Assembly (NCBI GenBank): GCA_017302895.1 | Contig: JAFLBV010000001.1 | Location: 1,721,001-1,785,000 of the forward strand | DNA from: Ignavibacteria bacterium | GTDB taxonomy: Bacteria > Bacteroidota > Ignavibacteria > Ignavibacteriales > Ignavibacteriaceae | Reading direction: 5' to 3' | DNA length: 64,000 nt | In this document: one piece after another, positions 52,851 through 63,699 of the stretch | Layout: each line of letters begins with the position of its first letter | Position numbering within the stretch: position 1 is the stretch's first letter | Program-made: the position numbers and the translations under genes | The notes under the pieces: generated by a model | Database searches by the model: none | Seen by the model: only the letters and a program-made list of their open reading frames with translations | What the model was told of the DNA's origin: nothing

Positions 52851-53501
52851 ATGAATAAAATAAAATCATCCCTGCTTATTGTCCTGTTAATTGGTTTGTT
52901 AATGGCAGTAACTGTATCAGCACAGGGAAAGCAAAAACAACCAACAGATGATTCTACAAAAAAATCTCAGGTGTCGAACGATAAACTTCGAAATCAATCG
53001 GATTTTCCAAAATTTCTGAAATATTTCCTGGAGCAAACCTACTACAATAATAATTTCAATATGCTTCTTTACAACAACGACAAGGCAGTTACAAACTTTT
53101 TCCATCCTGTTGTTGGATTTGTACGGGCTACAAATCCGGGAGCATTCTGCGTTCTCGAGCGAGAGAACAACTACGGAATTATGATGCCACAGGAAACCGG
53201 TTGGGAAAAGAACAGTATTACAGGATTAAAATTCTACAATAAAATGCCGAAAAACGGTCAATGTGACGAGTCGAAAGATAAAAACGGCGTTTATTACATC
53301 AAGAACAGTAAATTTCCACAGTACTGGGATCATGAAAAAGAAAAAGGTGTGGCATATTCACTTCCTGCAAAATACAAAAATGCACAGGTAATGAAGGTTG
53401 TTATTCTGGTTGACAAATGGATACAGAAGCGATTCTATTTTGCCAAAATCGACAAAAAATGGTATTTGATTTTGTCTGATGACTGTGATTGCTCGGCGTA
53501 A
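52851..53501 (+). CDS. Small secreted hypothetical protein
   Basis: 216 residues with a signal peptide (LLIVLLIGLLMAVTVSAQ). The mature part starts with a charged linker and has a soluble alpha/beta region rich in Tyr, Asn and Lys. It ends in LSDDCDCSA with a C-x-C pair. No family is recognised. It is 34 bases after the YD-like protein gene, so likely co-transcribed, and convergent with the ABC permease gene. Confidence 0.65.
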   Translation: MNKIKSSLLIVLLIGLLMAVTVSAQGKQKQPTDDSTKKSQVSNDKLRNQSDFPKFLKYFLEQTYYNNNFNMLLYNNDKAVTNFFHPVVGFVRATNPGAFCVLERENNYGIMMPQETGWEKNSITGLKFYNKMPKNGQCDESKDKNGVYYIKNSKFPQYWDHEKEKGVAYSLPAKYKNAQVMKVVILVDKWIQKRFYFAKIDKKWYLILSDDCDCSA

Positions 53502-53602
53502 ATTTACAGAGTTTTTCAGTTGAAAGTTGCTAAAACTGTACTATAAAATCATGTTGTAAGTTGTTATATTTTGACAAGAACGAATTTAAACTGAAAAATG
53601 AG

Positions 53603-55288
53603 TTATACATCCTTCTCTAATGACTTGATACCGATTCTGTAAAAGAACCAGCCGACAGCCATTGAAACCAGGAATACGAGGAGGGAAGTGGTGTATAAAG
53701 CGGAAGCATCAATAATCTTGTTGCGCAGAAAGTTGTTGAAAAACTGTGAAAGCGGTACATAAAGAGCAACAATCAGAAGCACAAGATAGATCATACTGAA
53801 CAAAAAAGAAATTGAAGCCCCTTGGGACGATGAAAGTCTCACGGGGTTTTTCTCTTTCAGGTTGATAAACAGTCCTCCCATTCCAAAGTTCATCATTACA
53901 AGAAACCACGAGGATGAGAATGAGATAATCGCCATAGGGAGCACGAGAGATGGTGAAAATCTCCATACAATAAAAAGAGACATAACCTGTGAGAGAATCA
54001 AAATGATGGTTAAGGGAATCATCAATCTTTTTCTTAACAGTTTCCGGGTGCTTACTGGAGCAGATTTAATCTTCCAGACTACATTTCCTTCAAGGCTTAT
54101 GAGAGGAAAAACATACCTCAAGGCAAGCGTGACGATAAAAAACACATTAAACAGATATACAGCCATAAAAATGGTTGTCAACAACAGGAACCTGTTTGAT
54201 GCGAGCATTGATATTCCCGAAAGGCTCGCAACAAAGATAATAATAAGGAATAGGAGCACCGAAAAGTGTATCACCTGGGCGGGTTCTCTTAAAAAAAGAT
54301 GAAACTCTCTTTTATAAATCACCTCTGAAAAGGCATTTTTCAAAAACGAGGTGTTCCTGAATGCAAATATCGGGGGCTTGCTCACCTTTGTTTCCCTGTT
54401 TTCTCTGAAATCTATCGACTTGTGCCAGGTATCAAGAAATGTTGCCTTCCCGATTAGAGTAACCACAATCAACAGAAAAAATGAGAGGGAAACCTGCAGA
54501 ACATAGTATGGAAATGCTGCTGAAATATCTCCTTTTACTGTCCAAAACATTGCCTCAGCCAGCCAGTTGCTTGGAAGAAAACGGATATAGGGAGGAATCA
54601 GGGAAGCGAAATAACCATCTACATTCGGGAAAAACTTCATCACACCGGCGACCGTATCAATGGGAGATGATACCTGAAAAAAGAGAACAATTATACCAAT
54701 ATAGCCCAAACCGAGGACAGCTACAACTCTCTTAAATCCAAATTTCAGAGCTGTATTTATCAAAACCAACAGGAGGAGCACGCCAAGAAGGCCCGCTGAC
54801 AGCATAAACGGAAGAAAATTAAAAAGAAACAGGAACACTGCATGGAGGACATTTACTTTGAAGTATAGTGTAAATCCGGTCAGAAGTGCCACCATCACCA
54901 TTATCAGGGTTCCGGAGGAATAGAAAAAATTATCAAAGAACTTAATAACGAAAATCCTTATCGGATTTACCGGTTTTGTCAGGAGAAATGCCACTTCGGG
55001 AGATCTGAAAAGAGTGGAGTATGAAACAACAATGTTGCCAACATTCACAGAAAGGAAGAATATGAATAAAATTATCGAGATAAACCGGTGAAGCAGAAAA
55101 AGCCCTATTCGTTGCTCTATCAGCAGGAAATCGAGTGCCCTGATGGCGAAAATATATGCTCCCGCAGCAAATCCGCCATAGACCAGCGTGCTCCCGACAC
55201 TTTTTACCAGTCCGCGCGCGGAAAAATCCATCTCCGGCTTCATAAAGGCTAGTATCTTAAACCAGATGATATGGAGAATTTGGGTCAT
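53603..55288 (-). CDS. ABC-2-type transporter permease
   Basis: 561 residues with about 12 hydrophobic helices, spread over the whole length, in two similar halves each starting with a coupling-type segment (FRSPEVAFLLTKPV near 95; FHLFLREPAQ near 330). This duplicated ABC-2 layout is typical of large exporter permeases. It is translationally adjacent to the ATPase gene upstream (55289). The substrate is unknown. Overlapping membrane genes of this type occur next to gliding or polysaccharide systems, but nothing nearby supports that. Confidence 0.78.
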   Translation of the reverse strand: MTQILHIIWFKILAFMKPEMDFSARGLVKSVGSTLVYGGFAAGAYIFAIRALDFLLIEQRIGLFLLHRFISIILFIFFLSVNVGNIVVSYSTLFRSPEVAFLLTKPVNPIRIFVIKFFDNFFYSSGTLIMVMVALLTGFTLYFKVNVLHAVFLFLFNFLPFMLSAGLLGVLLLLVLINTALKFGFKRVVAVLGLGYIGIIVLFFQVSSPIDTVAGVMKFFPNVDGYFASLIPPYIRFLPSNWLAEAMFWTVKGDISAAFPYYVLQVSLSFFLLIVVTLIGKATFLDTWHKSIDFRENRETKVSKPPIFAFRNTSFLKNAFSEVIYKREFHLFLREPAQVIHFSVLLFLIIIFVASLSGISMLASNRFLLLTTIFMAVYLFNVFFIVTLALRYVFPLISLEGNVVWKIKSAPVSTRKLLRKRLMIPLTIILILSQVMSLFIVWRFSPSLVLPMAIISFSSSWFLVMMNFGMGGLFINLKEKNPVRLSSSQGASISFLFSMIYLVLLIVALYVPLSQFFNNFLRNKIIDASALYTTSLLVFLVSMAVGWFFYRIGIKSLEKDV

Positions 55289-56020
55289 CTAATTTTCAGT
55301 CTCGCTTGTCAGTTCAATAAACAGAGTTTCAAAGTTGTGGCTCAACTCTTTTTTCATGGAAAGGAGTTCTTCAAGCCCGCCCGAAAAGATTATTTTTCCT
55401 TTGTTGATAATGCCGACGTCAGTGCAGATTTCTTCCACAACATTGAGGCTGTGGGTCGACATGAAAACAGTAATTCCTTCTTCCGATTTCCGTTTCAAAA
55501 ATTGTTTTACTAACACAGCCGATTGCGGATCGAGCCCGACCATAGGTTCATCGAGAATTATCAGTTCGGGGTGGTGAAGGAAAGCGGATGCAATCGCCAC
55601 TCGCTGTTTCATTCCTTGTGAGTATTCTTCGGTTCGTTTGTTGAGCCAGTCACCAAGTTTAAGCGTATCAATCATTTCATCGATTCTTGATTTCACACTC
55701 TTTTTATCGAGATTGTACAGCCCCCCGCAGAAATAAAGAAATTCCAGACCTGTTAATCGGTCATAAAGAAAAGGCTGATCGGGGATATAACCGGTGATAA
55801 GCTTTATCGCTTGTGCATCTTTAAGAATGCTAATTCCTTTAACTTCAATATCGCCTTCGGTCAGAGAGTATATACCGGTGAGCATCTTAATTGAAGTTGA
55901 TTTACCCGCTCCGTTTGGTCCCAGGAATCCGAAAAGAGACCCCTTTTTGATGTGGAGGTCGATGGAATTCACGGCTGTGAAAGAGCCGAACTTTTTAGTC
56001 AGTTTTTTGAATTGGATCAA
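55289..56020 (-). CDS. ABC transporter ATP-binding protein
   Basis: 243 residues. Walker A GPNGAGKST near residue 36, Q-loop GYIPDQPFLY near 80, signature YSQGMKQR near 135, Walker B LIILDEP near 155, and H-loop MSTHSL near 188. It powers the permease encoded immediately downstream with no gap. The YSQGMKQR signature and SLTEGDIEV pattern are typical of the ABC-2 export family (CcmA/NatA-like). Confidence 0.92.
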   Translation of the reverse strand: MIQFKKLTKKFGSFTAVNSIDLHIKKGSLFGFLGPNGAGKSTSIKMLTGIYSLTEGDIEVKGISILKDAQAIKLITGYIPDQPFLYDRLTGLEFLYFCGGLYNLDKKSVKSRIDEMIDTLKLGDWLNKRTEEYSQGMKQRVAIASAFLHHPELIILDEPMVGLDPQSAVLVKQFLKRKSEEGITVFMSTHSLNVVEEICTDVGIINKGKIIFSGGLEELLSMKKELSHNFETLFIELTSETEN

Positions 56021-56118
56021 TTGTGTTTTGTTTTTTCGTGGAAAGGATCATGGAAATTTGAGTAAGTAAGATTTAAATATATGTAAAAAATTTTCAGTTC
56101 AATTGGTTCCCGTTTAAT

Positions 56119-56146
56119 AAAAAAGGCAGGCGGTAAGCCTGCCTCG
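56119..56146 (-). terminator. Rho-independent terminator (minus strand)
   Basis: Reading the minus strand, AGGCAGGC pairs with GCCTGCCT around TTACC and is followed by six T. It ends the three-gene caspase operon, 21 bases after the YCF48-like gene stop. Confidence 0.92.
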
Positions 56147-56166: not shown

Positions 56167-58944
56167 TTACTTCAGAACCGACATTTTTCGGGTCGAAGAA
56201 TAAATTATGTTGTCTCCTTTTTTCAACTCCAGTCTGTACAGGTAAACTCCACTTGAAAGATTTCTGGCATCAAACAGTTCTTCATGATAACCCTCAGACC
56301 TGTATCCATCAACCAGTCGGGTGACAAAGCTACCGGAAATATCATAAACCGAGAGTGTGACATTTGCCGGCTCTTTCAAAGTGTATATGATCACGGTTTG
56401 AGGATTAAACGGATTTGGATAATTCTGCATCAGTGCGAACTCCGAAACCGTGTTTTTCTCCTTTTCAGAATCAATGAATGAATTGGTTCCGATAAGAAGC
56501 GAAAATTTTCTGTTTTTCACATGAGCAGGAACAATTATACTCCTTGTTTCTTTCAGATCGTAAAATTTCCTGATCTGTGTGTCATAAAGGAAAACTTCCT
56601 CATCCGGGAACTGGTCCAATCCGGAAACATTAAGGTTAGTTTGGTTTCCTGAGACATTACGAAACTGTATATCAAATGTCAGACCCTTATCACTCATCGG
56701 GCGTGATTCAGCCTGCAGTCGCTTATATGCAGTCCGTAATTCAGGACTATTGATCGTGATTGACACCTCTTCGAAAGTACTTGGTGCCGCAAAATAGTCG
56801 GTCGTATCATAATCGATTGTGGAATTTGGATCGATGGAAACCTGCAGTTTTGACATGGATCGGGTATCTTGTACCGCATCAATCGAGAGAACTTTGCCGT
56901 TCAATTGGATAACACCTTCGGCAGGTCCGCGTTTTTGCAGGGATCCGTTCGGATCGTAGGGCACCTTCAAATGCGTCAGACCGGTCGTGTTGTAGAAGTA
57001 ATATCCTATGAATGGAACCAGTGTAGTAGAGGTTGTCCATGTTCCATTGAACGCGTGCAAAAGTGTATTCTGAGCAAGTCCATTCTCCTGTTTAACCCTG
57101 TCCCAGTTCACTGTACGATGAAATGGATTCGTTATCATTGTCCATGTGTTAATAAGCGGTATTTCGAATATTCCATAATCACTAACAGGAAGTGTCAAGT
57201 CTGTTTCACTTCCAAATGTCACGGGTTTCAGGCTGAGGATCCAGTATGCCATACCGGGAATGAAATCATCGGTATATGGGTACAAGTAGTCAATCACATT
57301 CGATGAAATCGTACCATTGTCACCATAAACTGAATAGTCCTCCAGCCAATTACCCGGAGACATGTAGTAAATGATCTTTTTAGGTGATCTGACTCCCGGT
57401 TTGCCGATCATCCTGTAATCGCTCAACTTATTTCCTCCGAATGAGAATGACTTAGCTCCTGCAAAAGTCTCCGGATATTGGTAGATAGAAAATACCTGGG
57501 TGCTTTGATCTTTTATTGCGTTGTTTTGGGCATCCATTATCCTGATCTTGCCCTGGTTGGTCAGATTTCCGGGGACGCTCCAGATGTATGATCCTGTGGA
57601 GGCCGCAACAGTTTCAACGGGTCCCCATGTGGCACCGCCACTTGCTGAAAATTCTATAGTCACTTGGGAAACTTGTTGGCTCTCCCATCTGATCTGGAAT
57701 TTTCCATTCGCTTTTGCTCCCTCACCTCCGACAGGGGATTTGAGTGTAAGTGTTTTGGCTTTCAGGATATTGAAAAGGTTGTCACTTTGGTCCGAGATCT
57801 GACTGTTTAATACATCACTTATCCTGACCCGGCAGTCACTGCCGGTGATATTCGGAACTGTCCAGGCATATGTTCCCACCGCGGCCGGTGTGGAATTGAT
57901 GATCGTTGTCCAGTTAGTGCCGTTGTTGGTTGTGTATTCAATTTTAACATTTGCCACATCGGTAGAGGTCCAGGTAATGTTCTCGATTGAATTACCGTAA
58001 ATGGTTTCCGGGCCATTAGGATATGTAACTGTAACTTTTGGATTTATTGAGTATTTCAGGATCGTACCATCAAATCCAACAGCAAAACCTTTTGTTGAAT
58101 TTATCATGGCGATTTGAGGAATTATTACCTGTGATGGTATATTTTCCTTGACCCAACTGATACCTCCATCTGTTGTCCTGAGTATGGTTCCTGATTCACC
58201 TGAGACCCATCCATGAATTTGGTCAACAAAAAATACAGAGAGTAAATTTGCAGAAACACCACTGGTTCGCGAAGTCCAACTTTCACCCCCATTGATTGAA
58301 GTCCAGATCAGCCCTCCTTCGCCGATGATACATCCATTTCTTGCGGTGGTGAAGAAAACATCTGTGAAAACCCGCGATATTACAATCTGTCCTAACCAGT
58401 TTGTTCCTCCATTCACGGTCCGAAATATCCTGTCTTTTCCAACTACCCATCCTGTATCTTTATCCAGAAACTTCACAGAACTCAGAGGTAATGTTTCTCC
58501 CGTTCTCACTTCATTCCAGGATTCACCTTCATCAGTTGTTCTCAAACATAACCCGGTAGAGGTAACCAGCCATCCGTTTTGTGAGTTCACAAAGTAGATG
58601 TCGTATACATTTCCACTTGTTGCTGTGTTGGTGAAACTTGCACCACCATTCGTCGTCTTGTATATTTTCCCAGAGGTCCCAATGAAACCTGTATCACGAT
58701 TAACGAAAAAAACAGAATAGTTGCTAAGTAATGGATCGGGTTCTGTTAATTTTGCCCATGAATTGCCACCATCTACGGTTCTGATAAAAGATCCTTTTTC
58801 TCCCACCGCATAACCGATCAGGTTATTGACAAACTGAATATCATGCAGATGTTCTGTTTGAGGAAGCGGAGATACTACAGACCATGATTGCCCCAACACT
58901 GCCGGGCAAACAACATAAAAAAAGAAGTAATAAACCTTTCTCAT
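56167..58944 (-). CDS. T9SS-sorted YCF48/BNR-propeller and Ig-like protein
   Basis: 925 residues. Signal peptide to about residue 18. Residues 20-300 hold six or seven YCF48-like blades with GEKGSFIRTVDGG, GTSGKIYKTTNGG and GESGTILRTTDGG motifs. Two Ig-like domains follow (about 308-395 and 396-485, each with VKIEYTTNNGTNW-type strands), then a long beta-rich domain (about 490-830) and a T9SS sorting domain (about 840-925) with [10 protein letters not shown] and closing RKMSVLK. Surface-exposed; a scaffold or adhesion role is likely. Third gene of the caspase operon, nine bases from the protease gene. Confidence 0.88.
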   Translation of the reverse strand: MRKVYYFFFYVVCPAVLGQSWSVVSPLPQTEHLHDIQFVNNLIGYAVGEKGSFIRTVDGGNSWAKLTEPDPLLSNYSVFFVNRDTGFIGTSGKIYKTTNGGASFTNTATSGNVYDIYFVNSQNGWLVTSTGLCLRTTDEGESWNEVRTGETLPLSSVKFLDKDTGWVVGKDRIFRTVNGGTNWLGQIVISRVFTDVFFTTARNGCIIGEGGLIWTSINGGESWTSRTSGVSANLLSVFFVDQIHGWVSGESGTILRTTDGGISWVKENIPSQVIIPQIAMINSTKGFAVGFDGTILKYSINPKVTVTYPNGPETIYGNSIENITWTSTDVANVKIEYTTNNGTNWTTIINSTPAAVGTYAWTVPNITGSDCRVRISDVLNSQISDQSDNLFNILKAKTLTLKSPVGGEGAKANGKFQIRWESQQVSQVTIEFSASGGATWGPVETVAASTGSYIWSVPGNLTNQGKIRIMDAQNNAIKDQSTQVFSIYQYPETFAGAKSFSFGGNKLSDYRMIGKPGVRSPKKIIYYMSPGNWLEDYSVYGDNGTISSNVIDYLYPYTDDFIPGMAYWILSLKPVTFGSETDLTLPVSDYGIFEIPLINTWTMITNPFHRTVNWDRVKQENGLAQNTLLHAFNGTWTTSTTLVPFIGYYFYNTTGLTHLKVPYDPNGSLQKRGPAEGVIQLNGKVLSIDAVQDTRSMSKLQVSIDPNSTIDYDTTDYFAAPSTFEEVSITINSPELRTAYKRLQAESRPMSDKGLTFDIQFRNVSGNQTNLNVSGLDQFPDEEVFLYDTQIRKFYDLKETRSIIVPAHVKNRKFSLLIGTNSFIDSEKEKNTVSEFALMQNYPNPFNPQTVIIYTLKEPANVTLSVYDISGSFVTRLVDGYRSEGYHEELFDARNLSSGVYLYRLELKKGDNIIYSSTRKMSVLK

Positions 58945-58953
58945 TTCATAACC

Positions 58954-60627
58954 CTACTTTCTTATGAACAAAAACTGGCCACCTTCATCTCCTGTATTTT
59001 TTATCGGCTGATAAACGGGGCTTTGTTCGGAATTATTGGTTACAGGGATCTGAATCTCGTTGAACAACTGTCCGGCGGTGAAGAACCTTGATTTGTTCTG
59101 TTTCAGCTTATCGAGAAAATAATAGGAAAAGATCGAGTGACCCTCCCTTCCACCGTCGGTAACCGGTTCAACGCCGCCTGAAGTAAGCGCGTACCTCGAT
59201 TTTCTCTTGTACACTTCCTGAAAATACTTTTCCGTATCTTCAAAAGCCAGCTCACTCGTTCTTCCACGGAAGATATCGCCACTGAAGCAGGCGTCTGAAA
59301 CCAGAAGTGTATGTTTGGAATTTATTCCCGCAATGAAAGTCTGAAGATCATTGTTTGAAATGTAGCCGGCACTGGAGCTGGTGGTGGCATCAACAGGCAC
59401 CCAAAAACCTTTGTTCAGCTTTTCGTTGAACTCACCGTGCCCTGAGTAAAAGATCAGAACATTATCATCCTTTTTAACGCTGTCGATCAACTGCTCAAGC
59501 GCTGTAATAATGTTTGCTCTCGTGGCCTCCTCATTATAAAGTGAGATCACATGGTCGAAACCATAATCTTTTGCCAGCACCTCTTCAACCGCTTTCGCGT
59601 CATTTACTGCATTTCTGAGAGGATTCCATACACCTTTGTATTTATCGATCCCGATCACAAGAGCGTAATACTGCGCGACCAGAGCCAGATCATCCTGCCT
59701 CCAGACGATGTGGAAGGTATCAATACCGGTGTTACCCGCACTGTCAGTTGCGGAGACGATCACGGGATTTTCACCGATCTTGAGGTTAAGATCAATTGTG
59801 AATTCGCCCGTTGCCTGCAGATCCGCGGGCATTCTGTTCACAAGAACTTCAAGTATGCCACTGTCATCAACAGCCATCCCTACAATGTGCGCCGTTGACT
59901 TTGAAATAACTATCTTCTGACCACGGGTTGTGGGTGGATCAAGAATAACGAATGATGGCGGGGTAATATCCGTAATATAGTCAACCTGGAATGAGACTGT
60001 ACTTTTATTGTCAAGGCTGTCAAACGCGTCAATCATCACGGTGTTCAGTCCGGGTTGCAATTGAGGGTCGGAGTAAAACTGACCGCCTTCGATACTCTTT
60101 GATTTTTGACCGTTCACCAAAACCTGCCTCACTCCGCTTGGATCAGAGAGATTCATTATAACAGGGATCTTGCCTTCCTTGGTAATGTATGGTGCACCGG
60201 CAGTAAGCTTGGGTTGTGAGAGAGTAATAACCGGACCTTTGGAGTCATCCGACATTTCGATCGTAAACTCCAACGATGCAGAATTTTTGTTTTTATCAGT
60301 GGCCCACATCGATACTGAATTGTAACCTTTTACCAGATCAATGATGGTAGAGAACCGGTTCTGATCGTTTACTTCGATCGGTTTCGAGTTGATCGTCAAT
60401 TCAGCGATCCCTTCTTTGTCGGCGACCGAACCTGAAACTGTGATCCTGTTCGCTTTCATTCGCAGCAGTGAGCCTTGCGTTACCGGTGGGGAATCTACCG
60501 CGATGACCGGGGGCTGTTTATCGGTTGATTCCTTGATTACAATCTTCCCTTTGGGAGTGTTACCGACCGACTGGCCAATGATCATTGCCGGGGCAAGTAA
60601 AATCAGAAGAAAAGTTTTCTTTTTCAT
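58954..60627 (-). CDS. Secreted caspase-like (peptidase C14) protein with Ig-like domains
   Basis: 557 residues. Signal peptide (LLILLAPAMIIGQ). Three or four bacterial Ig-like repeats (about 35-310) with the pattern GSVADKEGIAELTINSKP and GMAVDDSGILEVLVNRMP. The caspase domain covers about 318-557: start YYALVIGIDKYK, catalytic His in FYSGHGE near 396, catalytic Cys in VSDACFSGD near 446, both intact. It should cleave after basic or acidic residues outside the cytoplasm; bacterial caspases are mostly arginine/lysine-specific (family knowledge). It is in operon with a membrane protein upstream and a T9SS protein downstream. Confidence 0.9.
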   Translation of the reverse strand: MKKKTFLLILLAPAMIIGQSVGNTPKGKIVIKESTDKQPPVIAVDSPPVTQGSLLRMKANRITVSGSVADKEGIAELTINSKPIEVNDQNRFSTIIDLVKGYNSVSMWATDKNKNSASLEFTIEMSDDSKGPVITLSQPKLTAGAPYITKEGKIPVIMNLSDPSGVRQVLVNGQKSKSIEGGQFYSDPQLQPGLNTVMIDAFDSLDNKSTVSFQVDYITDITPPSFVILDPPTTRGQKIVISKSTAHIVGMAVDDSGILEVLVNRMPADLQATGEFTIDLNLKIGENPVIVSATDSAGNTGIDTFHIVWRQDDLALVAQYYALVIGIDKYKGVWNPLRNAVNDAKAVEEVLAKDYGFDHVISLYNEEATRANIITALEQLIDSVKKDDNVLIFYSGHGEFNEKLNKGFWVPVDATTSSSAGYISNNDLQTFIAGINSKHTLLVSDACFSGDIFRGRTSELAFEDTEKYFQEVYKRKSRYALTSGGVEPVTDGGREGHSIFSYYFLDKLKQNKSRFFTAGQLFNEIQIPVTNNSEQSPVYQPIKNTGDEGGQFLFIRK

Positions 60628-60641
60628 GATTGTTCTCCTGT

Positions 60642-61115
60642 TTAAGGCCTTGCGGGCGGCATGGGTAGTTTCGTTTCTGAGGGAGGATCATTTCTTGGCA
60701 TCCCCAGGAGAATTGCCGCAATTCCTCCACTTACGATAACTCCACCTCCCAAGAGATATAACCATAATTTACTTTTTGACTCATCAACAACCACTTCAAA
60801 ATAGAAATCGTCACCATCAGCAAATTGCTGTGTCTCAGATTCCTTGAGTTCCCAGATGATGGTGCACTTCTTTTTTGCAAAGTATCCTTTGCCAATATCG
60901 CCCTTTAATTCGAGCGGTTCATAAGAAAATTCGGGGTTGTGGCCTCTTTTGAGTTTAACTTCGATCTCGTATTTGTCCTCAGGATCGCCGTCAAACTGGT
61001 AATAAATGTAGATTTTTTGATCTTTTACTTCAAAATTAGTCTCAACTTTCTGTTGAGAGAAGATTGTATTTGTAAAAAGGAACAGAAGCGGGAGAAACAA
61101 GTAAACAAGTTTCAT
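60642..61115 (-). CDS. Small signal-peptide and C-terminal-helix protein, partner of caspase gene
   Basis: 157 residues. Signal peptide to about 20 (ending SQQ), a beta-rich domain (about 25-112) with IYIYYQFDG and an EVVVDES strand, one membrane helix (about 118-138, LYLLGGGVIVSGGIAAILLG) and a short proline-rich tail. The start of the domain resembles small beta-sandwich proteins next to caspase genes in Bacteroidota, but I cannot name a family. It lies 14 bases upstream of the caspase gene. It could be an anchor or regulator of the protease. Confidence 0.6.
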   Translation of the reverse strand: MKLVYLFLPLLFLFTNTIFSQQKVETNFEVKDQKIYIYYQFDGDPEDKYEIEVKLKRGHNPEFSYEPLELKGDIGKGYFAKKKCTIIWELKESETQQFADGDDFYFEVVVDESKSKLWLYLLGGGVIVSGGIAAILLGMPRNDPPSETKLPMPPARP

Positions 61116-61443
61116 GGCATCCTCGGGGTAAGTTGAAAATTATATTGATTAAAAGGAGCGGGTGCGGAAGGATACTGGACTGCGTGCGAACCTGAAATAT
61201 ATTGCCGGATTTGGAAGTGCAGATTCCAAATGAACAGGAAATTCTACAAAAACTCTTCAAACCGGAATTCCAATCAGTTTCATTAAAAACAGGTTCTCTT
61301 GTGAAATATAATCATTATTTTAATTATTGTCAAGTTAAATTTAAAATTAATTATTCATTCAGACTTTTTGGATTTTTATTGTGAGAATTGATCTAAAATC
61401 AGTAGTATTGAAAGGTGAAATTCTTTTAATATGCGATAGTCAA

Positions 61444-62409
61444 ATGAAAAAGTATGCTCTGTATTCATTTATTGCAATCATCGTCCTCACTCTAATTCTT
61501 GTTTATGGATTGCAGAAACCAAATTCTCCTGAAACTGTGCTTGGCAGCCGAATAACAGATTCATCCGTTAAGATACAGTCTTCGGATACAACGCTTTCCC
61601 CCTCAGACTCAATCGGAAAGAATCAAATTTTAATCATTTATCCGTTGGGCAAGGAAAACTTAAAAGGGAAAAATGTTCTGATTACCATGGGTGGTATGGG
61701 TGCAAAACTCAAATGGGTGCAGAAATGGACAGAGGAGCTTTACAAGGCGAAGTTAAAAGAGTTTAATATCGGGATGATAATAGTCGTAAAGGGTCCCGTT
61801 GAGGAATATTATGATTCAAGGGAAATTGAGATAAAAGAGATGACAAAAAGATTTGTAGCTGCATATCAGCAATACGGTTTTAATGAGACTTTTCTTATTG
61901 TTCACTCAAGTGGTGTTTTCCCGGCACATCAGATGTTTGATTTCCTCTATATTGGGGGAGATGACCCGCACAACAAAAGTACGAAAATGCGAAAACTTGA
62001 AGTTCTCGACCCGAAAGGAATCACAAAAAACAGGATAACCTACATAATGCTTGATGGAGAATTGGGAATTCCAAAAGGCTACACTCTTACCGAAAAGATG
62101 GTTAAAAATCTGAAGAAAATTTATTCATTTTATGCAGTTGATTCTAAAACAAAGACTCTTTCCGGAATGGCGCACGAAGCAAAAAAGGTACAGAAAGAAT
62201 TTCCTGGTAAAACAGTCCTGTATGAGTATAAAGCAAAAGACAGCGGGTGCAACCCGGGCGCCAAGTGGTGTGTCCACGAGACTCTGATTACTACGAGACC
62301 GCACAACCCGGCAAAATATGACCTCGAAAAGGATTATCAATTCTTCGATCCAACCCGTAAAGTAGTTACGGGTTATATGGGCGTCGTCAAAAACGGGAAG
62401 TGGGAGTAA
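61444..62409 (+). CDS. Membrane-anchored protein with alpha/beta-hydrolase-like features
   Basis: 321 residues from the ATG at 61444; a GTG at 61381 would add 21 residues before the helix, which I consider less likely. One N-terminal helix (about 3-24, LYSFIAIIVLTLILVYGLQ) anchors it. The globular part has LITMGGMGAKLKWV (near 80), a possible nucleophile motif LIVHSSGVFP (near 160), YIMLDGELGIP (near 215) and CVHETLI (near 270), in an order that fits Ser-Asp-His. It has no close family I recognise. The upstream 328-bp gap shows no gene. Confidence 0.55.
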   Translation: MKKYALYSFIAIIVLTLILVYGLQKPNSPETVLGSRITDSSVKIQSSDTTLSPSDSIGKNQILIIYPLGKENLKGKNVLITMGGMGAKLKWVQKWTEELYKAKLKEFNIGMIIVVKGPVEEYYDSREIEIKEMTKRFVAAYQQYGFNETFLIVHSSGVFPAHQMFDFLYIGGDDPHNKSTKMRKLEVLDPKGITKNRITYIMLDGELGIPKGYTLTEKMVKNLKKIYSFYAVDSKTKTLSGMAHEAKKVQKEFPGKTVLYEYKAKDSGCNPGAKWCVHETLITTRPHNPAKYDLEKDYQFFDPTRKVVTGYMGVVKNGKWE

Positions 62410-62451: not shown

Positions 62452-63699
62452 TCAGATGCTGCTGTTTGGATAGATTATTGTTGTCACAGATTCTTCGCCA
62501 AATTCAAATTTTGGCGCAGGGCATCCTGCTTCAGACAGAGTTCTGATTATTGTTGGGATACCTTGACCCTCTGCCTGAGCAAGCTGCATTTTGTTAAAAA
62601 AATATGCCAAAGTCTGATTTCTCCAAAATGGTGCAGAGCGTCCTTTTCTGAATTCGGTTTTGTCGATTTGTGATGGCAGTTTACCGGGTGAGAGGAACTC
62701 AATTCGGTCATTAAAAATTGTAATTCTGACGGGTTGGTCAATCTCGTAATCACGGTGGACCATACAATTTACAACCGCCTCTTGGAGCGCTCTTTTAGGG
62801 TACCGTTCAAGGTTGGGTTTCGAACTTTCCTTATTGAAGAAAGTGGCAGTCTCGTAACCAAGCAGGTCTATCAATTTTTTTGTTTGGGTAATGATATTGC
62901 CGGTGATTTCGTGTCTTACTCCATAAGGTTCACTTCTGTCATTTCCTTTATATATCGATAGATATGCGAATGCACCGCTAAAAAATTTAAGAGGTTCATT
63001 AGAGAACAGTAACAATGAAAAATTTTTCGGAAACTCCTTTTGATTAATCCCTTCATAACCGAGCAAAGGTGGTATGTGAGCTGAAAAAGAGAGGGAAGCT
63101 GAAAGGTAGTCATCGATACTTTTTCTCTCATCCCATAGCTTCATTTCCTGAAGATAACTCCTGAGAGTAATCAAATCGATATCATTTACTGAAGCAGATT
63201 TATTGAGTTGCTTGTCCCATGATGGCATTACGCCCTTGGAACGAAAAAGATCCAACATCAGCCCGTTGCGGGCTTCGCGGGTTTGTCTTCCGATCCTGAT
63301 GTAATACACAGTCTCTCCGGTTCGCACACTTCTGAACGAGTGGGCTTTCTCACTGGCAGCGATAATAAAAACCAGAATTCTTTTTCCTGAACCGACCTGA
63401 ATTTCTTCAGTCACAGGAACGAGGGGAGGGGAAACTCTTTCCCTAAGCAGGGTCAATGTTTTACCCTCAATTTCTTTCAGGCGGTTTGAATCCAGTCCCT
63501 TCAAATCAATTTTCTGAAAACCATATTCATCCCTGGTCTCTGCTGCACCACAAATAATGTAGCCACCGCCGAGATTGGAATAATCGTTCGCAAATGCAAC
63601 AGCGGTTTTAACCACATCCTCGATGTCTGCAACATTCTCTTTCCATTCAACTCGTTCACTCTCTCTTTTGGAGAGTTCATCAAGATCAATAATGCTCAT
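62452..63699 (-). CDS. AlbA_2 (Schlafen-like) DNA-binding/ATPase-like regulator
   Basis: 415 residues. N-terminal AlbA_2/Schlafen domain (about 10-140): ESERVEWKENV, NDYSNLGGGYIICG, and AHSFRSVRTGETVYYIRIG with a following RQT. The C-terminal part (about 285-405) has an ATPase-like region: RALQEAVVNCMVHRDY (HATPase_c_4 N-box) and GKLPSQI, with a DNA-binding-like end. This is the COG2865 architecture of putative transcriptional regulators, often near defence or stress genes. The gene is monocistronic here. Confidence 0.88.
   Translation of the reverse strand: MSIIDLDELSKRESERVEWKENVADIEDVVKTAVAFANDYSNLGGGYIICGAAETRDEYGFQKIDLKGLDSNRLKEIEGKTLTLLRERVSPPLVPVTEEIQVGSGKRILVFIIAASEKAHSFRSVRTGETVYYIRIGRQTREARNGLMLDLFRSKGVMPSWDKQLNKSASVNDIDLITLRSYLQEMKLWDERKSIDDYLSASLSFSAHIPPLLGYEGINQKEFPKNFSLLLFSNEPLKFFSGAFAYLSIYKGNDRSEPYGVRHEITGNIITQTKKLIDLLGYETATFFNKESSKPNLERYPKRALQEAVVNCMVHRDYEIDQPVRITIFNDRIEFLSPGKLPSQIDKTEFRKGRSAPFWRNQTLAYFFNKMQLAQAEGQGIPTIIRTLSEAGCPAPKFEFGEESVTTIIYPNSSI

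What the first reader, a model, noticed from the sequence alone, without database searches (positions are those of the whole stretch)
58954..61115. Secreted caspase-like protease with Ig repeats between a small membrane protein and a T9SS surface protein
The protease has a signal peptide and intact His-Cys dyad, so it acts in the periplasm or outside, unlike defence caspases (which are cytoplasmic). Gaps of 14 and 9 bases and a terminator after the third gene define the operon. The 157-residue protein could anchor or restrain it and the 925-residue T9SS protein could be its substrate or scaffold. I do not know a described system with these three parts.
Basis: partly seen in the sequence, partly recalled or inferred. 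Interest (0 to 1): 0.65.

Follow-up and report, generated by a model that had tools for sequence, protein, structure and literature searches.

The report
Exported caspase beside a surface protein
A bacterium of the Ignavibacteria group carries three genes, kept together in many relatives, for an exported caspase, a small membrane partner and a large surface protein, which hints that some bacteria use caspases to manage their cell surface and not only to kill themselves.

Summary
On the minus strand lie P157 (signal peptide, Ig-like domain, membrane helix, PPxRP tail), a 557-aa exported Ig-repeat caspase with intact His397/Cys447, and a 925-aa type IX (T9SS) cargo, with gaps of 14 and 9 bases and a terminator-like hairpin. 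The trio is a real unit: in 17 caspase loci, P157 is directly upstream in 16 and a T9SS cargo is the next gene in 13. Most relatives also carry an exported papain-like protease, a further secreted protein and a CHASE2 sensor upstream; this genome lacks the papain, and the trio is absent from the same site in a close congener. Two parts are undescribed families: P157, and a 350-residue region of the cargo ('SURF'). P157-type proteins pair with SURF cargoes even without a caspase (19 of 20 loci), sometimes beside a Ser/Thr kinase and PP2C instead. Best reading: an inner-membrane adaptor with a dedicated surface cargo, to which a periplasmic caspase, predicted to cut after Lys/Arg, was added to process or gate that cargo. 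Substrate, activity and interactions are inferred. Nine paper searches found no such operon described.

The parts
60642..61115 (-). P157: signal peptide (cut before Gln21), Ig-like domain (about 22-113), membrane helix (about 117-137), PPARP C-terminus
   Evidence: no Pfam/NCBIfam family
60705..60767 (-). membrane helix of P157 (residues about 117-137)
   Evidence: hydropathy; Gly-rich helix conserved in A2
60645..60659 (-). PPARP C-terminus of P157 (PPxRP tail)
   Evidence: conserved in A2 and in the wider tail family
58954..60627 (-). exported Ig-repeat caspase, 557 aa
59701..60507 (-). Ig-type (Glucodextran_B-like) repeats, residues about 41-309
58957..59673 (-). caspase catalytic domain, residues 319-557; His397 (59437-59439), Cys447 (59287-59289)
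56167..58944 (-). T9SS cargo, 925 aa: propeller head, KNH Ig domain, SURF region, sorting domain
56425..57477 (-). SURF region (residues 490-840), shared by cargoes that sit beside P157-type proteins
56215..56421 (-). type A T9SS sorting domain (residues 842-910)
56123..56145 (-). terminator-like hairpin after the third gene
61305..61333 (-). promoter-like site upstream of P157 (TTGACA-17-TATATT)
   Evidence: consensus match only

Best explanation
The three genes are an accessory surface-display cassette with its own protease. The 925-aa protein is exported through the inner membrane and then by the type IX system to the cell surface; its N-terminal head varies between relatives while its SURF region is kept. 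P157 is a dedicated partner of this cargo: it stays in the inner membrane, with its Ig-like domain in the periplasm and its PPxRP tail in the cytoplasm. The caspase has a signal peptide but no lipobox and no type IX sorting domain, so it should stay in the periplasm, where the cargo passes through; it is predicted to cut after Lys or Arg. I propose that the caspase docks on P157 and processes or gates the SURF cargo (or P157 itself) when triggered, in most relatives together with an exported papain-like protease and a CHASE2 membrane sensor. Shown: gene order, export signals, intact catalytic dyad, conserved neighbourhood, type IX translocon gene in the genome. Inferred: docking, substrate, cleavage specificity, trigger.
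For: Dyad and signal peptide conserved in 13 of 13 aligned caspases, with Gln19 invariant; Gln21 invariant in 14 of 14 P157s. That Gln fits the signal peptidase I Q-rule, for which Ignavibacterium album is reported at 77% (PMC5837995, passages). The model of the catalytic domain matches metacaspase 4 (Z 19.8, 203 residues, 2.8 A) and MALT1 (Z 19.5). In one search the NDA motif (Asp343) aligns with the metacaspase CIND motif; Asp445 and Ser395 sit two residues before Cys447 and His397, as the S1 residues Asp211 and Ser156 named for TbMCA2 (PMC4357240, passages) would if its dyad is His158/Cys213 (recalled). 17 loci: P157 directly upstream in 16, papain upstream in 16, T9SS cargo next in 13. Loci chosen by P157 alone in the phylum: SURF cargo within three genes in 19 of 20, caspase directly after P157 in 8 of 20; some of those caspases are a distant subfamily with CARDB-type domains, yet exported, with both motifs. 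The SURF region is essentially single-copy in the genome, while there are at least 150 T9SS cargo genes. SprA, the T9SS translocon, is present.
Against: No interaction or cleavage is shown. SURF-P157 pairs occur without a nearby caspase in 12 of the 20 P157-chosen loci, so the caspase is not needed for the pair. In one of 17 loci (G067) the caspase has neither P157 nor a cargo beside it, and in G010 and G072 the cargo is several genes away. A loop in SURF has a basic residue in 16 of 21 sequences (column 208), but also in loci without caspase, so it is no sign of a caspase site. Sequence distances of the three proteins correlate (r 0.75-0.79, 0 of 5000 permutations), but shared ancestry alone would give that. 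P157's topology is from hydropathy only.
Confidence: 0.45

Rival explanations
1. Outside-in proteolytic signalling: the SURF cargo is a receptor, not a substrate. Ligand binding by its variable head is passed to P157, which releases or activates the caspase against some other periplasmic protein, with CHASE2 as a further sensor.
For: Heads vary widely: YCF48 propeller, LamG, beta-helix, Fib_succ_major, HYDIN-type Ig, PQQ-type propeller. The same SURF plus PPxRP-tail pair sits beside a PP2C and a Hanks kinase with PEGA domains in L300, beside genes of the same starts in L302 and L303, and beside such a kinase in L304. In Bacteroidetes the P157-like/caspase pair sits next to a Reg_prop/Y_Y_Y/SpoIIE sensor protein. 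A metacaspase-CHASE2 fusion is reported in Trichodesmium (PMC3501461, passages).
Against: A type IX cargo leaves the periplasm, so a route from the surface back to the caspase is not obvious; the window genome lacks the papain gene and its two CHASE2 matches lie in longer frames (742 and 736 aa).
Confidence: 0.27
2. Envelope-level cell death, killing of neighbours, or phage defence by an exported caspase.
For: PADLOC's general caspase model matches the catalytic domain (E 1.1e-19); the authors of PMC3501461 suggest that extracellular metacaspases might act in death or fratricide (passages); the trio is an accessory island next to another accessory gene.
Against: PADLOC matches neither P157 nor the cargo, nor the papain, c4 and CHASE2 proteins of L037; no nucleotide sensor, NTPase or immunity-like gene in the operon; the steady partner is a surface protein.
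Confidence: 0.08
3. General periplasmic maturation protease: the caspase and papain activate each other and trim many exported proteins; the adjacent cargo is one client among many.
For: In the papain proteins a Q..C..W motif, a His and an Asn are invariant in 15 of 15, and all 15 begin with a signal-peptide-like stretch; at least 150 T9SS cargoes exist in the genome.
Against: The adjacent cargo is of one kind (SURF) in 12 of the 13 loci where it is the next gene, and caspase plus cargo are present or absent together in G000 and G076.
Confidence: 0.12
4. Neighbourhood without function: T9SS cargo genes are so common that one lies downstream by chance or by shared transfer.
For: At least 150 cargo genes in the genome; shared ancestry explains part of the conservation.
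Against: With 0.073 as the chance of a cargo next door (my estimate: 240 candidates over an assumed 3300 genes), 13 or more of 15 has P about 1.5e-13 if loci were independent, which they are not; distant caspases in other families show the same trio.
Confidence: 0.05

Closest known systems
Prokaryotic metacaspases / orthocaspases (Peptidase C14)
   Same: caspase fold, His-Cys dyad, predicted basic P1; WD40, FGE and CHASE2 associations are reported (PMC3501461, PMC5756287, passages)
   Different: exported, Ig-repeat N-terminal part, operon with a membrane adaptor and a T9SS cargo
PorP/SprF partners of type B T9SS cargoes (PMC9143113, abstract and outline)
   Same: a dedicated partner protein for one large T9SS cargo
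   Different: P157 is a small single-helix protein, not an outer-membrane barrel; the cargo here has a type A sorting domain; binding is not shown
MALT1 paracaspase
   Same: caspase domain with Ig domains; catalytic domain model Z 19.5
   Different: cytoplasmic animal signalling protein (recalled); Ig domains of different kind and order
Gingipain/PorU-type C25 peptidases of the T9SS
   Same: clan CD cysteine peptidases linked to the T9SS (recalled; gingipain passages in PMC4357240)
   Different: this one is C14 and has no sorting domain, so it is not itself a T9SS cargo

Membership tests
Peptidase C14 (caspase/metacaspase) | C14 domain above the Pfam cut-off | tested here: met
   79.5 bits vs 21.4, E 3.9e-22
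Peptidase C14 (caspase/metacaspase) | His-Cys catalytic dyad | tested here: met
   His397 and Cys447 invariant in 13 of 13 and in 18 of 18
Peptidase C14 (caspase/metacaspase) | caspase fold | tested here: met
   model Z 19.8 to 6w8r over 203 residues, 2.8 A; model pTM 0.45, confidence uneven in the catalytic part
Peptidase C14 (caspase/metacaspase) | proteolysis after Arg/Lys | not testable with these tools
   acidic candidates for S1, Asp343 and Asp445, are conserved; activity needs an assay
T9SS type A cargo (925-aa protein) | type A C-terminal sorting domain | tested here: met
   PF18962 28.7 bits vs 27; TIGR04183 34.9 vs 23
T9SS type A cargo (925-aa protein) | T9SS translocon in the genome | tested here: met
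   SprA frame of 2304 aa, E 4.1e-240; other components not searched
T9SS type A cargo (925-aa protein) | found on the cell surface | not testable with these tools
   needs fractionation
T9SS cargo (the caspase itself) | C-terminal sorting domain | tested here: not met
   no sorting domain; the caspase domain runs to the C-terminus
Caspase-based anti-phage defence | a PADLOC-modelled partner gene in the operon | tested here: not met
   only the general caspase model matched; none for P157, the cargo, or papain, c4 and CHASE2 of L037
PorP/SprF-type cargo partner (P157) | PorP/SprF family sequence or outer-membrane barrel | tested here: not met
   no such family; 157 residues, Ig-like domain plus one helix

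The most novel reading that the evidence does not exclude
P157 and SURF are two ends of an undescribed surface platform of Ignavibacteria and related classes: a variable-headed type IX giant plus a PPxRP-tailed inner-membrane adaptor, to which different output enzymes are attached (caspase with papain and CHASE2; Ser/Thr kinase with PP2C). The caspase version would be a bacterial outside-in proteolytic pathway in the periplasm.
Probability: 0.3. Interest if true: 0.82.

Novelty: new variant of a known kind. Interest (0 to 1): 0.6.

Why it matters
Bacterial caspases are mostly discussed as cytoplasmic death or defence proteases. A conserved caspase that is exported and genetically tied to one named surface protein gives an ordinary, testable candidate substrate and a non-death role. 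The pairing also brings out two undescribed families (P157 type and SURF) that can be searched for in cultured Ignavibacteria and Bacteroidota.

Tried and rejected
Rejected readings. (1) Caspase as a T9SS cargo: no sorting domain. (2) Defence island: PADLOC gives only the bare caspase model. (3) A generic T9SS region: residues 490-840 of the cargo gave one match in the genome by single sequence; by profile one strong match plus seven weak partial ones in one cluster at C1:215-228 kb, so not generic. (4) I first took the longer P157-like proteins of Bacteroidetes (263 aa) for outer-membrane barrels; their extra part looks like hydrophobic helices (my reading, not tested), so I dropped that. (5) The basic residue in a SURF loop as a caspase site: also present where no caspase is. 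(6) A structural relative for P157: best Z 7.9, Foldseek best E 0.021, a common Ig arrangement, inconclusive.

Led nowhere: single-protein scan of named genomes (41 pattern matches, none confirmed); solved structures for P157 and SURF (best E 0.11 and 0.49); paper searches for CHASE2 with CHAT (0 papers) and metacaspase with type IX secretion (1 paper, unrelated by its title). My recalled analogy to cyanobacterial CHAT-CHASE2 gene clusters found no support and is not used.

Full report
WHAT IS THERE. Three minus-strand genes, 61115-60642, 60627-58954 and 58944-56167, with gaps of 14 and 9 bases, an 11-of-12 promoter-like site before them and a terminator-like hairpin after them. The middle one is a 557-aa protein with a signal peptide, Ig-type repeats (Glucodextran_B, E 1.8e-24) and a Peptidase_C14 domain (E 3.9e-22). 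The third is a 925-aa type IX cargo: YCF48-type propeller, KNH Ig domain, type A sorting domain. The first, P157, matches no Pfam or NCBIfam family; its model shows an Ig-like beta sandwich (block-mean pLDDT mostly above 90 from residue 31 to 110), followed by a hydrophobic helix and a PPARP end.

THE CASPASE. In 13 aligned relatives His397 and Cys447 are invariant, as is Gln19 just after the signal peptide. Gln21 is invariant in 14 P157s. Gln at the +1 site is the Q-rule of signal peptidase I substrates; the paper reports a Q-value of 77% for Ignavibacterium album (PMC5837995, passages read). The predicted catalytic domain fits metacaspase 4 (Z 19.8), MALT1 (Z 19.5) and other clan CD peptidases; model confidence is uneven (mean pLDDT 77.5, pTM 0.45). 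Asp343 lies in the NDA motif that aligns with CIND of yeast metacaspase, and Asp445 lies two residues before the catalytic Cys; TbMCA2's described S1 residues include Asp95 and Asp211 (PMC4357240, passages). Equating these positions is my inference. So cleavage after Lys/Arg is predicted, not shown.

RELATIVES. The genome is one of 80 held for its family; named records with the closest caspases are Ignavibacteria MAGs, several titled Ignavibacteriaceae. P157 matched in 23 of 80 family genomes at E <= 0.01, the caspase in 21 of 80 at 1e-20, the papain-like protease in 23 of 80 at 1e-6, but not in this genome. I assembled 17 loci with the close caspase: the window, 12 more family genomes, two named contigs, and two from the phylum search with P157 (one of these, G417, appears to be the contig that one search also returned as L177, having the same length). 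In these 17, P157 is directly upstream in 16; the papain gene is upstream in 16 (next to P157, or in G067, where P157 is missing, three genes before the caspase); and a T9SS cargo gene is next downstream in 13. The cargo is several genes away in G010 and G072, cut off in G078 and absent in G067 (for G072). For G054 I disregard a 68-aa ORF call that overlaps the caspase gene; for G069 the cargo is cut by the contig end and recognised by SURF alone. In relatives the full order is CHASE2 (one N-terminal and two or three C-terminal helices by hydropathy) - c4 - papain with a DUF4384-like part - P157 - caspase - cargo. In the papain proteins a Q..C..W motif, a His and an Asn are invariant in 15 of 15. 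Two further loci, from G044 and G048, have FGE proteins with a P157-like part, two caspases and the papain.

ACCESSORY. In congener G076, whose ABC permease beside the trio is 99% identical, DNA matches window 52871-56075 (93%) and then 61598-62408 (86%), with only 331 bases between. The trio is therefore absent there, and so is the Schlafen/AlbA gene at 62452-63699. Gain and loss cannot be told apart. None of the three other held genomes of the genus has a match to P157 or the caspase at the thresholds used.

TWO FAMILIES BEHIND THE TRIO. Residues 490-840 of the cargo ('SURF', my label) have one match in the genome by single sequence and one strong plus seven weak partial matches by profile, although there are at least 150 sorting-domain genes (150 of 240 candidates scored, all 150 matched). 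SURF has no consistent NCBIfam family and no solved relative. In the family, 24 of 80 genomes have SURF, 27 matches. I fetched 25 of the 27 loci; SURF was called in 24 of these (in L142 it lies outside the stretch). In 17 of 24 a P157-type or PPxRP-tailed protein is within three genes; of the other seven, four are cut by contig ends, one (L141) has P157 further up the same operon, and two (L307, L308) have none. Conversely, of 20 loci chosen by P157 in the phylum (20 of the 37 rows, the strongest after the first two, which are G078 and this genome), 19 have a SURF cargo within three genes, the last being cut off; a caspase follows directly in 8 of 20. Six of those eight caspases are only distantly related to the window's (E about 1e-14 to 1e-31 where printed), begin with signal-peptide-like stretches, and in L255, L256, L257, L263 and L267 show both catalytic motifs; L265 has two caspases that each show only one of the two motif patterns. 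L255, L257 and L267 bear CARDB-like domains instead of Glucodextran_B. In L300 the PPxRP protein (TPR and TIG domains) follows a PP2C and a Ser/Thr kinase with PEGA domains; L302 and L303 have genes with the same starts, and L304 has the kinase. Among 1869 ORFs of the larger fetched loci, 42 distinct ones end in PPxRP-like tails; 41 belong to or neighbour these modules and one (L264, 78 aa) looks spurious. These loci were chosen by related searches, so this is no genome-wide rate.

WIDER CASPASE FAMILY. The catalytic domain is 60-65% identical in many Bacteroidetes (196 of 276 candidate stretches confirmed, best 80 kept). There the caspase is, in the cases looked at, fused to WD40 repeats or sits after a P157-like protein and before a Reg_prop/Y_Y_Y/SpoIIE protein, so exported caspases with other partners are common.

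MECHANISM. Topology follows from sequence: caspase in the periplasm (signal peptide, no lipobox, no sorting domain), P157 in the inner membrane, cargo crossing the periplasm. Because P157 pairs with SURF even without caspase, P157 is most likely the cargo's partner and the caspase an added controller. I rate processing or gating of the cargo at 0.45 and receptor-type signalling at 0.27.

KNOWN OR NEW. Metacaspases with signal-peptide-like helices, extracellular domains, CHASE2, WD40 or FGE are reported, and an operon survey exists (PMC3501461, passages; PMC5756287, passages). Dedicated partners of T9SS cargoes are known for type B cargoes (PMC9143113, abstract and outline). I found no paper on a caspase with a T9SS cargo (open-licence library only; listings read, and passages of the papers named). 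Hence: a new variant of a known kind.

Noticed in passing
window 62452-63699: Schlafen/AlbA_2 plus RecG C-terminal-like gene, also absent from the matching site in G076; PADLOC gives matches to pAgo-associated models (best E 1.9e-19).
   Followed up: partly
L138:5415-10068 (G000:C1 about 1289414-1294067): Second caspase locus of the same genome: an exported WD40-caspase (773 aa, both motifs) starts 4 bases after another T9SS cargo gene, which has a CotH domain.
   Followed up: partly
L300, L302, L303, L304: SURF cargo beside a PPxRP-tailed protein and a Ser/Thr kinase (PEGA domains in L300 and L304); a PP2C gene also lies upstream in L300.
   Followed up: partly
L265:4267-7893: Two neighbouring caspase-like genes, one matching only the His motif pattern and the other only the Cys motif pattern; possibly a split pair.
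   Followed up: no
L198, L199, L203, L206, L215, L220, L230: Bacteroidetes arrangement: protein of about 530 aa (kelch-type in L198), P157-like protein, exported caspase, then a protein of about 1080 aa (Reg_prop/Y_Y_Y/SpoIIE in L198).
   Followed up: partly
L128:838-2907: Caspase of 689 aa with a different N-terminal region, without P157, near a TPR/CsgG-type protein; the only one of 17 loci that breaks the P157-caspase order.
   Followed up: no
G000:C1:215504-227794: Cluster of large T9SS cargoes that weakly share part of the SURF region.
   Followed up: no
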